Assembly: GCF_025398735.1 (NCBI RefSeq)
Contig: NZ_CP104694.1
Coordinates: forward strand, 4,055,001-4,119,000
DNA length: 64,000 bases
Direction: 5' to 3'
Origin: Tahibacter amnicola
GTDB lineage: Bacteria > Pseudomonadota > Gammaproteobacteria > Xanthomonadales > Rhodanobacteraceae
The translations under genes were made by a program, and so were the position numbers. How positions within the stretch are numbered: position 1 is the stretch's first letter; the number at the start of each line of letters is the position of its first letter. Below, piece by piece: positions 27,834 to 64,000 of this stretch. The notes beneath the pieces were generated by a model. The model did no database searches, was not told the DNA's origin, and worked only from the letters and a program-made list of their open reading frames with translations.

Positions 27834-29471
27834 TCAGATTTCTTCGCGCACGACAGTGCTGAGGACGAACTCCTTCTTCAGATACAGCCGTTCTGCGGGC
27901 AGCTGACGCGCGCGACACTGTTCCAGAACGCGGTCGGATTCCACAATCGGGCGCGAGTCGTCGCTGTAGGAAATGCTGGAGATGTACCCGAGCCAGGGTT
28001 CCAGGCCCATCGCATACACGTACACCGCCTCCGGCGCCAGGCGGTCGATGATCTGCATGGCCGATTCGCTGTGCGAGGAATTGAGCCGGCGTGACTGGTC
28101 GACCGCGCGCTGGACGGGCCTGGTGTAGAGCGGCCCATAAAGCCACGACAGCGGCGCGCCATCGCATTCCAGCCCGATAAAGAGCGCATCAACGTCGCCC
28201 ACGCGCCGCCGGATGTGCGCGTAGCAGCGCGGTTCCAGCGCATTGGAATCGGCCAGGAATACCAGCCCGCGGCCCGCGCTTCGAATGCCGTAGGCCAGCT
28301 TGGAACGGATATCCAGATCCGCATGCTCACCGAAGAAGGGCAAGCCGATGATCTCGCCCGCGCCCGCCGTCAGCGTCTCGAATTCGTCCAGTTCGATGAC
28401 ATTCGCAAACCCGATCGTCCGCAACATCAGCCGCAGGGAAGGATCCTGCAACGGCCCCGACGCCGAGCGCGGCACGACGACACAGCCGATCTTGTGGCGC
28501 AGCTGGAGCAAGGTTTCCAGCATGACGTGATCCTGGTGATTGTGGGTCAGCAGGACGTAATCGATGGCATCGGGAAGGTCGTAGAAGCTGTAACGGTCCA
28601 GTCCCGTTTCGGACGCCGTGCTGACCGCCGGATCGATCAGGATCGACAACCCGGCGTACTGCACCAGCACGGTTGCATGCCCGAAGTAGCGCACGCGGAT
28701 GCCATCGCCGCTGTAGTGGCGCTGGGGATCCAGCGGTGGCGCAACGTCTGTCAGCAGGGAGAGAAAGCGTTGCTGCTGGGCCTCGTTCGCGCCCGCTTCC
28801 ACCAGCCACTGGACGACCTGCCCGCGTGACGTCGGCCGGGTACGCAGCGCCGCCAGCGCGTCCACGAGCGGCGAGCGGAACGGCAGGTGAAGATCGACAT
28901 CGTCCGCGCTCGCGAAACGCGGACTGCTCAGCACGAACGGACGGTCGTCGCAGGCGATATCAGAAAATCGCACCGACTGCAGCGATTCATCGTAGTTCGG
29001 ACTGTCGTACAACATGCCCTCCACCAGGCGAAAACCGGGCCGGTTGTGCAGGTCATAGACGAGCTCGACATAGCCCTTGAGCGGCTGAGGAACGCTTTCG
29101 TACAAGCCGGCCAGCGACTGGCCATCTGTCTTGGTTGCGAGCAGTTCGTTGAGCTGCTTGACCGCGGCAGCAAAAGCCAGCTTGCCAGCCAGGTGCTCGC
29201 GTGTGCGGTCGAGCAACGCCTGCACGGGCGCGATGTCGCCGTCATAGTCCATGAACATGCCGCCCTTCATGGCCTGGTCCGCCACCGCGCGACGGTGCAG
29301 ATCCGGGAATTGCAGGTATGACTCCAGCACCCGTACATGCAGATTGGCCGTGATCATCGCCGAGGTCGCCGGCGATACGAGCATGCCCCATGCATACCAG
29401 CTGTTGAACAGCGGTTCCATCTGGACGGAGGGCTTCAGGTACAGGGGGGCATCGGACACGACGGAACTCAC
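27834..29471 (-). CDS. CmlA-type diiron beta-hydroxylase acting on carrier-bound amino acid
   Basis: This 545-residue protein has the CmlA N-terminal domain (SVQMEPLFNSWYAWGMLVSP) and a metallo-beta-lactamase-fold C-terminal domain. The metal motif is THNHQDH (His310, His312, Asp314, His315), with Glu382 in GEHADL and Asp408 in ADSN. These match the diiron ligands of CmlA at a constant offset, as I recall them. CmlA beta-hydroxylates an amino acid tethered to a peptide synthetase carrier domain in chloramphenicol synthesis, using a diiron centre and O2. The start is GTG. It is the last gene of the operon, 32 bases after the Leu-type synthetase, so the final Leu-like residue or another carrier-bound residue could be its substrate. 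Confidence 0.88.
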   Translation of the reverse strand: MSSVVSDAPLYLKPSVQMEPLFNSWYAWGMLVSPATSAMITANLHVRVLESYLQFPDLHRRAVADQAMKGGMFMDYDGDIAPVQALLDRTREHLAGKLAFAAAVKQLNELLATKTDGQSLAGLYESVPQPLKGYVELVYDLHNRPGFRLVEGMLYDSPNYDESLQSVRFSDIACDDRPFVLSSPRFASADDVDLHLPFRSPLVDALAALRTRPTSRGQVVQWLVEAGANEAQQQRFLSLLTDVAPPLDPQRHYSGDGIRVRYFGHATVLVQYAGLSILIDPAVSTASETGLDRYSFYDLPDAIDYVLLTHNHQDHVMLETLLQLRHKIGCVVVPRSASGPLQDPSLRLMLRTIGFANVIELDEFETLTAGAGEIIGLPFFGEHADLDIRSKLAYGIRSAGRGLVFLADSNALEPRCYAHIRRRVGDVDALFIGLECDGAPLSWLYGPLYTRPVQRAVDQSRRLNSSHSESAMQIIDRLAPEAVYVYAMGLEPWLGYISSISYSDDSRPIVESDRVLEQCRARQLPAERLYLKKEFVLSTVVREEI

Positions 29472-29503
29472 TCTGTGGGATGTTTCCAGGGTTTTGTGCG
29501 CTT

Positions 29504-61959: not shown

Positions 61960-63316
61960 GCAGGCAGAACAACCCTTCCTGGCCGGCGCGGCCGACATTG
62001 ATGACGCCGTCGGTCAGCGAACGGGGCTTCATGCGGATCGTTCCCCCGGCCGGCGTGCCGCCCACGATGAACGCGCCCCATACCACGTCGTGGTCGGAAT
62101 AGCCGGTCTCCGGATGATGGAACACATAGGGCTTGGACGACGCGCACTGCTGCAGCAGCCACTGGTGATCGCCCAGCGCAGCGTCGATGCGGGCCTGCCA
62201 GGTTGCGGCGTCCGAATAGCGTCCCAGCACGACACCGCGGCCACCGTAGTCGCGCGCCGGCTTCAGGACGAAGCGTTCACGCTGGCTCAGCGCGAGTTCG
62301 CGCAGATCGTGCTCGGCGTCTTCGAATCGGACCGGCCCCGGCAACATCAGGCTTGTCCACGGAATCAGCGCATCAATCACGCCGATTTCGTCGCGCGTGA
62401 ACCAGGCATCGTCGCGCATGGCCGTCATCAGCGCGAAGGTGCGCTTGTCGCCGGAGAAGAAACTCGTGGGACCGTCGAAGGCGACCAGATGCCCCGCCGT
62501 GCAGGCAGCAAATGTCTGGCGCGACACGCCTTGCCCGTCATTCCGGACGAGCACGTGCACCGGCTGGCCATTGCAGGTCACGCCCGAGGGCCCGTAGGTC
62601 AGTTCAGATTCGTCGACGATCGTCGACGTGACACATTCCATGCCCAACCGCTGCGCCGCCTCGGCAAACCATCTCGCCACGTGCACGCTGGCGAACTCCC
62701 GGAACCGGGGATCGACGAGCATCGCCAGGCCAGCGCGACCACCAGCGGCAACATCGGGCTGTCGCCGGCAGATCTTCGCGACGTGGTCGAAGAGATAGCC
62801 AACGGTGTCCTTGCAACGCAGGGAAAGACCCTGGCGCTCCAGGTACTGCGCCGTGACCGGCGTGTCGAGATAGATCGGCAGCCAGGCCTGCGCGTAGAAG
62901 CCGCTGGCACCAGCGCCCATATTGGCTTCGAGAATCCTGAACCCGTCGTCCCCGTACATCAGGTCCAGCCGGTAGACCTCGTCGTCATAGCACGACGGCA
63001 CGTCGAGCACCTTGACCGCCGTTTCGGCATCGGTCATACCCCAGAACCGCGCCGCCAGCGATGGCGCCGCCCGGACCAGGCGCAACGGCATGCCGACGAT
63101 CAGGCGACCCGCCTGGCGCGTGACCTCTTCCAGGCGCTCCAGGAACGGCGTGCCGACCAGGAGCGGAACCGGCTGGTCCACGGACCAGTCGTGCAAATGG
63201 GGCATGCCGCGACCGGGCACCAGGGGGCCAGAGGCGAACGGCTGCTCCGCCAGATAGCGCGCGAACCGTTCGGATTCGGGCGACAGTTCGCGATGGCTGT
63301 CGAAGGCACTACTCAT
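61952..63316 (-). CDS. ATP-grasp-like enzyme of the lipopeptide operon
   Basis: This 454-residue protein has RFVLKPARDYGGRGVVLGRY near residue 350, followed by WLLQQCASSKP, the ATP-binding part of ATP-grasp ligases. DEVYRLDLMYGDDGFRILEAN is near residue 112. The order of elements resembles ATP-grasp proteins of the glutathionylspermidine-synthase or circularly permuted kind, which make amide bonds with ATP. The substrate is unknown. It could tailor the lipopeptide, for example by capping a carboxylate. Its ATG overlaps the stop of the preceding membrane-protein gene, and its stop overlaps the FAAL start, so it belongs to the operon. Confidence 0.7.
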   Translation of the reverse strand: MSSAFDSHRELSPESERFARYLAEQPFASGPLVPGRGMPHLHDWSVDQPVPLLVGTPFLERLEEVTRQAGRLIVGMPLRLVRAAPSLAARFWGMTDAETAVKVLDVPSCYDDEVYRLDLMYGDDGFRILEANMGAGASGFYAQAWLPIYLDTPVTAQYLERQGLSLRCKDTVGYLFDHVAKICRRQPDVAAGGRAGLAMLVDPRFREFASVHVARWFAEAAQRLGMECVTSTIVDESELTYGPSGVTCNGQPVHVLVRNDGQGVSRQTFAACTAGHLVAFDGPTSFFSGDKRTFALMTAMRDDAWFTRDEIGVIDALIPWTSLMLPGPVRFEDAEHDLRELALSQRERFVLKPARDYGGRGVVLGRYSDAATWQARIDAALGDHQWLLQQCASSKPYVFHHPETGYSDHDVVWGAFIVGGTPAGGTIRMKPRSLTDGVINVGRAGQEGLFCLHD

Positions 63317-64000
63317 GGCGCGGTTCCTGGCAAAGGGAGAAAGCCTGTCGCGACGGTGTCGACGACAAGCACACGGTCCGGCAGATGCGACGAAGTGAAT
63401 CCGGACGGGCGCGTCGCCGCGGTGTCCACATAGGACTCAACCGCGACGTACACGTCTTCCGGCAAGGCAGCGGCACCGACGAATTCCAGCGTCAGCGTGC
63501 GGCGCACATCCAGGCCATCGCGCAGGACGAAAAGCTGGTAACCGCCCGTCTTGATGAGACCCGTCGCGTCGATCCGCTGGCCATCGTCCAGCACGATTGC
63601 GCGCAGCTGCGCCGGTGAGGGAACGGCAATCGTCAGGGAATTGGCCCCCCTGTGGGATGCGAGCGTGAGACGCAGCGTGCGCGAACGCACTTCGAACTGT
63701 CCCAGCCGCTCGATCGCGCCACAGCACTCCACACGACGGAATACCTGAGACGACTCACCGCTCCAGGGAAACAGCGCGGCGTCGCGGCGTTCAAACCCAT
63801 CGGGAATCGTCGCACTGTCACCGCGCACGGATTCATAGGCCTGGTTCGAATCACGCCGCACGATGCGATCGGTGTTGTATGTCGGCGTGTCGCGGCTATC
63901 CAGCTGACTGACGGCGAAGAACTGCACGGCGACAGCGGCAGCCAGCGCTCCCAACATCGCGAAGCCTCGGGTCGCCGGCATCGCGACGCGACCGGAACCG
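63313..64000 (-). CDS. C-terminal part of a membrane protein, cut by the window edge
   Basis: The frame is open to the right edge, so the true start may lie outside; a Met at 63981 is available. The visible part has one hydrophobic segment (GFAMLGALAAAVAVQFFAV) followed by a beta-rich exported domain (LRLTLASHRGANSLTIAVPS, LKTG-like segments, VRRTLTLEFVGAAALP). It resembles the end of a polytopic protein with a periplasmic C-terminal domain, perhaps an M28-type membrane peptidase, but this is weak. It overlaps the ATP-grasp start in an ATGA, so it is in the operon. It could act in export, maturation or self-protection; this is speculation. Confidence 0.5.
   Translation of the reverse strand, partial: GSGRVAMPATRGFAMLGALAAAVAVQFFAVSQLDSRDTPTYNTDRIVRRDSNQAYESVRGDSATIPDGFERRDAALFPWSGESSQVFRRVECCGAIERLGQFEVRSRTLRLTLASHRGANSLTIAVPSPAQLRAIVLDDGQRIDATGLIKTGGYQLFVLRDGLDVRRTLTLEFVGAAALPEDVYVAVESYVDTAATRPSGFTSSHLPDRVLVVDTVATGFLPLPGTAP

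What the first reader, a model, noticed from the sequence alone, without database searches (positions are those of the whole stretch)
27834..64000. Lipopeptide NRPS operon with an unfamiliar architecture
Nine overlapping or tightly spaced genes plus one cut by the edge encode a fatty-acid-loading starter and eight amino-acid modules. By-eye codes predict acyl-Ala-X-Cys(thiazoline)-Ile/Val-Asn-Asp-Gly-NMe-Leu. The combination of FAAL start, one heterocyclisation domain, three beta-hydroxylases of two unrelated folds and an interrupted A domain matches no pathway I know.
Basis: partly seen in the sequence, partly recalled or inferred. Interest (0 to 1): 0.9.

Follow-up and report, generated by a model that had tools for sequence, protein, structure and literature searches.

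The report
Orphan lipopeptide assembly-line gene cluster
A bacterium carries a long set of genes, apparently intact in the part examined, for building an unknown fat-tailed, oxidised peptide; most of its parts are familiar, but the combination, and two companion proteins with no known role, are not.

Summary
On the minus strand, 27834-64000 encodes a fatty-acyl-AMP-ligase (FAAL) loading module plus eight amino-acid modules, one heterocyclisation (Cy) domain, two TauD-type and one CmlA-type hydroxylase, and an adenylation domain interrupted by a methyltransferase. All nine carrier domains keep their serine.

"Matches no pathway" is only partly right. C-TauD followed by C-A(Asp), with a second stand-alone TauD and a FAAL start, is the published potashchelin arrangement; an inserted N-methyltransferase and a Cy-A(Cys)-T module are standard. 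The region is also only half of a contiguous, co-directional 70-kb locus: upstream lie an MbtH protein, exporters, two AspH-type hydroxylases and an NRPS-PKS line that starts with a condensation domain and ends in a thioesterase, which the FAAL line lacks.

Least familiar are a glutathione-synthetase-fold ATP-grasp protein (g454) that recurs in NRPS gene neighbourhoods, and an ABC exporter fused to an M28 peptidase. No orthologous cluster was found in the genomes searched. Product, release and function are inferred; MIBiG and antiSMASH were not available. Verdict: a real orphan cluster, a new variant of a known kind, of moderate interest.

The parts
63313..64000 (-). C-terminal end of g1302 (whole gene 63313-67221, beyond the window): cyclic-peptide-type ABC exporter fused to a membrane M28 metallopeptidase
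   Evidence: Pfam ABC_tran, ABC_membrane, Peptidase_M28; TIGR01194 304 bits, cut-off 286; Walker A and candidate zinc-ligand motifs present
61952..63316 (-). g454: ATP-grasp protein of glutathione-synthetase fold, no Pfam or NCBIfam family
   Evidence: no family; AlphaFold2 model pLDDT 82.8; Foldseek best 2hgs human glutathione synthetase E 4e-16
60304..61941 (-). FAAL loading domain of the 1688-aa protein (gene 56932-61998)
   Evidence: best solved match 7r7g E 1.5e-108, other FAALs below it
60019..60261 (-). carrier domain of the loading module (ENGLDSL)
   Evidence: motif
58744..59985 (-). module 1 C domain (HHLVTDA)
   Evidence: Pfam Condensation
57244..58692 (-). module 1 A domain, code DLFNNALTYK, Ala
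56989..57210 (-). module 1 carrier domain
56780..56935 (-). TubC-like docking segment at the start of the 2169-aa protein (gene 50426-56935); no Pfam hit, by likeness to the other two
   Evidence: sequence
55448..56734 (-). module 2 C domain (HHIAADG)
53927..55393 (-). module 2 A domain, code DPRNFCLRAK, substrate unknown
   Evidence: uninformative
53681..53884 (-). module 2 carrier domain
52346..53617 (-). module 3 heterocyclisation (Cy) domain (DMLMVD)
   Evidence: groups with another Cy-motif domain of the genome at 100/100
50786..52273 (-). module 3 A domain, code DLYNMSLIWK, Cys
   Evidence: best solved match BmdB
50501..50713 (-). module 3 carrier domain
45795..50429 (-). 1544-aa NRPS: TubC docking, module 4 C-A-T (DAYFLGVTFK, Val/Ile-like), module 5 C
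44866..45795 (-). stand-alone TauD-type Fe(II)/2-oxoglutarate hydroxylase (ATG at 45795; longer ORF to 45972)
   Evidence: Pfam TauD E 8e-38; HNE and AHGR motifs; coding-frame profile
41816..44806 (-). module 5 A-T (DATKVGEVGK, Asn) and module 6 C (HHLFIDE) of the 1369-aa protein (gene 40760-44869)
40784..41650 (-). TauD-type hydroxylase fused to the C-terminus of the 1369-aa NRPS
   Evidence: Pfam TauD E 1.9e-40; HSE and SHGR motifs; 37% identical to the stand-alone TauD
40149..40763 (-). DUF6817 (HD-like) protein, 204 aa, unknown role
   Evidence: PF20680 E 1.4e-19
38905..40107 (-). degenerate C domain (NAASFDT, both catalytic His lost), candidate hydroxylase-docking domain
   Evidence: Pfam Condensation E 3.4e-8, 33.1 bits against a cut-off of 30.6; alignment; model inconclusive, pLDDT 60
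37129..38847 (-). module 6 A-T, code DLTKLGHIGK, Asp
34075..37092 (-). module 7 C-A-T, code DILQLGMIWK, Gly
32776..34032 (-). module 8 C domain at the end of the 2655-aa ORF (ORF 32377-40344, likely start about 40134; tail after 32776 not coding-like)
29504..32647 (-). 1047-aa protein: TubC docking, module 8 A (DAWFLGHVVK, Leu) interrupted by a methyltransferase, carrier domain; no TE
   Evidence: MT best solved match 5wmm E 5.8e-38
27834..29471 (-). CmlA-type diiron beta-hydroxylase
   Evidence: Pfam CmlA_N E 6.9e-76; best solved match 8a90 E 1.7e-128, then CmlA

Best explanation
The window carries the acyl-starting part of an orphan nonribosomal lipopeptide pathway. A FAAL activates a free fatty acid as its adenylate and loads it on a carrier; eight modules then add Ala, an unassigned residue, Cys (cyclised to thiazoline by the Cy domain), a Val/Ile-like residue, Asn, Asp, Gly and N-methyl-Leu. 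The stand-alone TauD and the C-fused TauD beta-hydroxylate carrier-bound Asn and Asp, the degenerate C domain next to the Asp module serving as the docking site of the fused one; the CmlA-type enzyme hydroxylates carrier-bound Leu. The peptide is exported by the ABC-M28 fusion, whose peptidase half may trim it outside the cytoplasm. As the line has no TE and the contiguous upstream line begins with a C domain and ends in a TE, the release I favour is hand-over to that line, giving one longer lipopeptide-polyketide. Shown by sequence: genes, domains, catalytic motifs, code residues. Inferred: substrates, hydroxylation sites, hand-over, trimming and product. Not known: biological role.
For: Domain scans; sequences, codes and active-site motifs; FAAL, Cy-A, MT and CmlA matches to solved proteins; potashchelin precedent for C-TauD | C-A(Asp); FrsH precedent for Leu; in locus L117 a CmlA homologue and two TauDs (49 and 47% identical to the fused one) sit among NRPS genes of which two of three A codes resemble Asp; contiguous 70-kb co-directional gene block with one MbtH at 67310-67513; upstream line domains; in a tree of the C domains the first upstream C falls with the larger group of ordinary C domains (weak, 75/90).
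Against: No product or expression data. Module 2 substrate unassigned. Hand-over would run against gene order; the C-terminus of the 1047-aa protein has no motif like ...EGILEL or ...EQGEL of the FAAL and 2169-aa proteins, and the upstream line's first protein shows no TubC domain. The tree is a poor test: long branches, the first upstream C pairs with the degenerate C at 85/81, and the C domain that I labelled first of another line (3527492) falls in the same group. The upstream line has three frame breaks inside domains, so as assembled it would not work; two other NRPS lines of the genome also show a C domain split over two frames, which makes assembly indels plausible but unproven. Only 9 (stand-alone) and 8 (fused) of the 80 CmlA loci hold a TauD relative, so CmlA and TauD are not regular partners. 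The two halves may be neighbours by chance.
Confidence: 0.7

Rival explanations
1. The FAAL line makes its own complete octapeptide, released in trans by a TE protein upstream or with the help of the ATP-grasp protein g454, which would couple the freed carboxylate to an amine or amino acid. The upstream NRPS-PKS line is a separate pathway.
For: A stand-alone TE-family protein (4127015-4127941) lies in the block; g454 has the fold of ligases that join a peptide carboxylate to an amine and homologues lie between or near NRPS genes; each half has its own hydroxylases and exporter genes.
Against: A type II TE normally edits rather than releases (recalled); no precedent found for release by such a ligase (one search found no paper with its three terms).
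Confidence: 0.35
2. It is a lipopeptide siderophore of the potashchelin/taiwachelin/cupriachelin kind, using hydroxy-Asp, hydroxy-Asn and thiazoline to bind iron.
For: FAAL start, one fused and one stand-alone TauD, C-TauD | C-A(Asp); a cyclic-peptide-type exporter, a family that includes the pyoverdine exporter (recalled); TonB receptors 3.5 and 19 kb downstream.
Against: No hydroxamate or catechol gene among the cluster genes scanned; neither receptor is in the gene block, both are on the other strand; the TauDs reach no NCBIfam hydroxylase cut-off; a beta-hydroxy-Asp lipopeptide that is not a metallophore is known (turnercyclamycin, passage).
Confidence: 0.15
3. The locus is decaying or partly non-functional, so no product is made.
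For: Three frame breaks in the upstream line and a lost tail in the 2655-aa ORF.
Against: The FAAL-line domains are open and keep their motifs; splits in other NRPS lines of the genome point to assembly errors.
Confidence: 0.12

Closest known systems
Potashchelin biosynthesis, Halomonas sp. MG34 (PMC7100376, passages read)
   Same: FAAL-ACP start; one TauD fused behind a C domain directly before a C-A(Asp)-PCP module; one stand-alone TauD; no E domain
   Different: No Cy or methyltransferase in its published domain string and no CmlA in the passages read; ends in TE with hydroxy-ornithine; different peptide; no ATP-grasp or exporter-peptidase fusion in the passages read
FR900359 pathway with diiron hydroxylase FrsH (PMC7794379, passages read)
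   Same: CmlA-family enzyme acting on carrier-bound Leu; two assembly lines in one pathway; MbtH partner
   Different: Side chain started from acyl-CoA, not by a FAAL; its two products are joined by TE transesterification; no Cy or TauD in the passages read
Bacillamide synthetase BmdB (PDB 7ly4)
   Same: Cy-A(Cys) arrangement, best solved match of module 3
   Different: Different, small product without lipid start (recalled)
Interrupted A domain with N-methyltransferase (PDB 5wmm, recalled as TioS)
   Same: Methyltransferase within an A domain, E 5.8e-38
   Different: Substrate and host pathway
Glutathione synthetase / glutathionylspermidine synthetase fold (2hgs, 3n6x, 7uk8)
   Same: Whole-chain fold of g454, TM-scores 0.54-0.64 for these three
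   Different: 14-15% identity; g454 is only 22-27% identical even to the six relatives aligned with it; it sits in an NRPS operon

Membership tests
FAAL-initiated NRPS lipopeptide pathway | FAAL plus carrier domain before the first C domain | tested here: met
FAAL-initiated NRPS lipopeptide pathway | complete modules in a co-directional set | tested here: met
   nine carrier domains with serine, C and A domains open; exception: tail of the 2655-aa ORF
FAAL-initiated NRPS lipopeptide pathway | terminal release domain (TE or reductase) on the line | tested here: not met
   no TE or reductase in the window genes scanned; TE only upstream
FAAL-initiated NRPS lipopeptide pathway | acyl-peptide product | not testable with these tools
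   needs mass spectrometry
beta-hydroxy-Asp lipopeptide siderophore (potashchelin kind) | C-TauD before C-A(Asp)-T and a stand-alone TauD | tested here: met
beta-hydroxy-Asp lipopeptide siderophore (potashchelin kind) | further chelating group such as hydroxy-ornithine | tested here: not met
   no N-hydroxylase among the scanned genes and none of the eight codes read as Orn; module 2 is unassigned
beta-hydroxy-Asp lipopeptide siderophore (potashchelin kind) | uptake receptor in the cluster | tested here: inconclusive
   TonB receptors at 6787-8913 and 21384-24368, outside the gene block
beta-hydroxy-Asp lipopeptide siderophore (potashchelin kind) | TauD falls in the TBH/IBH_Asp clades | not tested
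   those profiles are not held
CmlA-type diiron hydroxylase | CmlA_N domain and metallo-beta-lactamase part with metal-binding motifs | tested here: met
Interface (hydroxylase-docking) C-type domain | C-fold domain without the catalytic His next to a hydroxylated Asp module (definition recalled) | tested here: inconclusive
   His lost and C match E 3.4e-8; model poor; the defining paper (PMC6778253) is not held
Glutathione-synthetase-like ATP-grasp ligase | fold of the family | tested here: met
Glutathione-synthetase-like ATP-grasp ligase | ATP-dependent amide ligation | not testable with these tools
   E130, N132 and K352 invariant in the seven aligned sequences only suggest activity

The most novel reading that the evidence does not exclude
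The whole 70-kb block is one pathway with reversed gene order: the FAAL line hands an oxidised, thiazoline-containing octapeptide to the upstream NRPS-PKS line, g454-type ATP-grasp ligases are a so far unnamed class of NRPS companions that add a group to a free carboxylate of the peptide, and the exporter-fused M28 peptidase matures it on the way out, cutting off the acylated head as in prodrug systems.
Probability: 0.15. Interest if true: 0.75.

Novelty: new variant of a known kind. Interest (0 to 1): 0.45.

Why it matters
If the readings hold, this is an unexplored lipopeptide scaffold with up to three beta-hydroxylated residues and a thiazoline. The more general point is the ATP-grasp family: proteins of glutathione-synthetase fold, here without a Pfam or NCBIfam match, that lie between or near NRPS genes in several genomes and once directly behind the same type of exporter; a single enzyme assay could give them a function. 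The exporter-M28 fusion likewise makes coupled export and maturation directly testable.

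Tried and rejected
Close relatives of the cluster. g454 as a single query in genome contigs gave none (which matches by short exact peptides). By the genome search, own genome included, it is in 5 of 233 family genomes (E 1e-10), 3 of 398 of an order sample and 2 of 398 of a phylum sample (E 1e-15; the samples overlap), at 24-29% identity outside the window copy; (61 relatives) shows in addition two short weak matches, at up to 30%. In the family, CmlA relatives occur in 16 of 230 genomes, own included, at most 45% identical outside the own copy apart from two fragments of 46 and 51%. The FAAL protein's best near-full-length matches in the genus (8 genomes) are 34 and 35%. 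The upstream A-KR-T protein: 2 of 230 family genomes, own included, 35%. Plasmid records: the C-TauD protein matched 1612, all under 60%; CmlA 38; g454 4, all Streptomyces at 21-27%, two of them without annotation.

Module 2 A domain: the solved-structure search only returns general A domains; its xPR code recalls alpha-aminoadipate domains, from memory only, so I leave the residue open. Degenerate C domain: the structure model was too poor to use, so no fold search was made. DUF6817: in 3 of 99 relatives, 2 over the cut-off, uninformative. The alignment of g454 homologues was too divergent for a collection scan. Siderophore reading weighed and not adopted. Organism name: I suspect Tahibacter (Rhodanobacteraceae) from genome size and family make-up, a guess that no call confirms. 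Ten paper searches listed no paper that I recognised as being on this cluster; only listings were seen except for the passages cited, and the library holds open-licence papers only.

Full report
Place. The window is 4055001-4119000 of a single-contig genome of 6,458,662 bases with 42 condensation-domain matches. The window's cluster lies on the minus strand. I call the genes by protein length.

What is there. From upstream to downstream: g1302 (ABC exporter fused to M28 peptidase, mostly beyond the window), g454, the 1688-aa FAAL protein, g2169, g1544, a TauD protein, g1369, a DUF6817 protein, g2655, g1047 and a CmlA-type protein, followed by a pirin gene 43 bp on. Domain order: FAAL-T-C-A-T | TubC-like, C-A-T-Cy-A-T | TubC-C-A-T-C | TauD | A-T-C-TauD | DUF6817 | degenerate C-A-T-C-A-T-C | TubC-A(MT)A-T | CmlA. 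The nine carrier serines are present. The condensation active sites read HHLVTDA, HHIAADG, DMLMVD (Cy), HHTAADA, HHIACDA, HHLFIDE, NAASFDT (dead), HHVAVDA, HHLIADE. I saw no epimerisation domain and no TE on this line.

Residues. Codes are given in the observation check. Six of eight (Ala, Cys, Asn, Asp, Gly, Leu) read as familiar codes by recall; the fourth is hydrophobic, the second is open. The automatic extraction differs from the hand-anchored codes in five of eight domains (DLFTNALTYK against DLFNNALTYK, DPRNFCLVCK against DPRNFCLRAK, DLYSMSLIWK against DLYNMSLIWK, DAYFLGVFSK against DAYFLGVTFK, and one gap in the Gly code); I used the motif anchors because these loops carry gaps.

Hydroxylases. 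The two TauD proteins are 37% identical and both have an HxE...H motif. Their best solved relatives are a clavaminate-synthase-like protein and another TauD-like protein. In potashchelin biosynthesis the TauD at the C-terminus of PtcB, behind a C domain, is proposed to act on Asp in the adjacent C-A(Asp)-PCP module, and a stand-alone TauD on another Asp (passages). The same layout here assigns the fused TauD to Asp (module 6) and leaves the stand-alone TauD for Asn (module 5), by inference. In locus L117, titled a proteobacterial bin, a CmlA homologue (48%) and two TauDs (49 and 47% to the fused TauD) stand beside NRPS genes; two of their three A codes resemble Asp codes. Over the 80 CmlA loci a TauD relative is seen in only 9 (stand-alone query) or 8 (fused query). 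The CmlA-type protein matches 8a90 best, recalled as FrsH; FrsH acts on carrier-bound Leu (passages), so module 8 Leu is its likeliest target. The degenerate C domain next to the Asp module is a candidate docking ('interface') domain; the defining paper could not be read and the model was poor.

N-methylation. The methyltransferase inside the last A domain matches only 5wmm among solved proteins at E 0.01, with E 5.8e-38, recalled as a backbone N-methylating interrupted A domain. By recall this is a standard arrangement.

Beyond the window. The gene block continues without a strand change to 4152796: MbtH (4122310-4122513), an FtsX-type ABC permease, ABC ATPase, HlyD protein, a TE-family protein, two AspH-type proteins (one by Pfam; both resemble the acyl 2-hydroxylases OlsC and LpxO far below cut-off), a T-TE ORF, a KS-AT-MT-KR PKS, an AMP-ligase-KR-T protein and NRPS genes; from sequence and motifs I read the NRPS part as C-A-T-C-A(Cys)-T-E-C-A-T-C. 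The largest gap is 328 bp, of which MbtH takes 204. This line ends in TE and starts with a C domain; the FAAL line starts with a loader and lacks a TE. The two are complementary, hence my preferred, but unproven, hand-over. In the C-domain tree the first upstream C falls in the larger, weakly supported group (75/90), but it pairs there with the long-branched degenerate C (85/81), and a C domain that I took for the first of another line is in the same group, so the tree does not separate starter from internal C domains well. Also against hand-over: gene order, no matching docking motifs, and three frame breaks in the upstream line. Two other NRPS lines of this genome show a C domain split over two frames, so assembly indels are plausible.

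g454 and exporter. g454 has no Pfam or NCBIfam hit and only a 0.21 E-value match by sequence in solved structures; its model (pLDDT 82.8, seven-sequence alignment) matches glutathione synthetases and glutathionylspermidine synthetases over its length. Seven places with several kb of flanking DNA were looked at. Window: NRPS operon. L055 and L152: between NRPS genes. L057, a second copy in this genome: directly behind an ABC exporter as in the window, with an NRPS frame about 6 kb off on the same strand. L058: three tandem copies 1.3 kb from an NRPS frame on the other strand. L054: no NRPS match, but a TauD relative about 1 kb away (267 bits to the fused TauD). L056: a protein with a weak C-domain match and, on the other strand, an M28 peptidase gene. 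So five of seven lie within about 6 kb of NRPS genes. The relative in G003 (L011) lies on a 5-kb contig without such genes in the part held, and the two partial matches were not examined. On Streptomyces plasmids, of four weak relatives two have annotation: one sits among small-molecule genes including another ATP-grasp protein, one about 1.6 kb from an NRPS gene; both are called hypothetical. I infer an amide ligase of specialised metabolism. The exporter half of g1302 passes the curated cyclic-peptide exporter cut-off; the M28 half keeps HxD, D, EE, D and H candidates for zinc binding (ligand pattern recalled). Of 230 family genomes, 27 (own included) match g1302 at E 1e-60; no listed match other than the own one extends past residue 579, so no second fusion was seen, though only two candidates per genome were scored.

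Distribution. No orthologous cluster was found; the numbers are in Tried and rejected. The sampling outside the family is thin, so the absence is not proof.

Judgement. A genuine orphan lipopeptide NRPS cluster whose parts are mostly known and whose combination I could not match.

Noticed in passing
window 18577-18661 (+): C4 antisense RNA (RF01695), 65 bits against a gathering score of 45, the only Rfam match in the window at gathering scores; C4 is known from phage P4-like elements (recalled).
   Followed up: no
G000:C1:4129617-4152796 (L005, L006): Three frame breaks inside domains of the upstream NRPS-PKS line (two in A domains, one in a carrier domain before the TE), and C domains split over two frames near 3.988 and 4.249 Mb: possible assembly indels.
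   Followed up: partly
G000:C1:3952001-4040000 (L057, L143-L146): A second large NRPS region of the same genome with its own g454 homologue behind an ABC exporter and its own CmlA-type gene at 3978047.
   Followed up: partly
G006:C12:35316-39122 (L058): Three g454-like ATP-grasp domains in tandem in one 1473-codon open frame, 1.3 kb from an NRPS frame.
   Followed up: partly
L054 7147-8013 and 9065-10147 (-); L056 8943-12671: Without a full NRPS beside them, g454 relatives still sit next to a TauD-type hydroxylase (L054) or an M28 peptidase gene (L056), the same partner families as in the window.
   Followed up: no
window 40149-40763 (-): DUF6817/HD-like protein inside the NRPS operon, with 4-bp overlap to the gene before; no role known.
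   Followed up: partly
window 32377-32776 (-): The 2655-aa ORF loses coding character after its last C domain and overlaps the next gene by 271 bp, so its stop or frame may be altered.
   Followed up: partly
window 24659-26599 (-): 646-aa ORF with only a sub-threshold match to Disaggr_repeat (PF06848, 23.9 bits against 33.9), beside the pirin gene; an overlapping plus-strand ORF of 643 aa is as long.
   Followed up: no
G004:C12:2385-5537 (L048): A FAAL-like match and an ABC-exporter match abut, both given with an open frame of 1455 codons: possible FAAL-exporter fusion.
   Followed up: no
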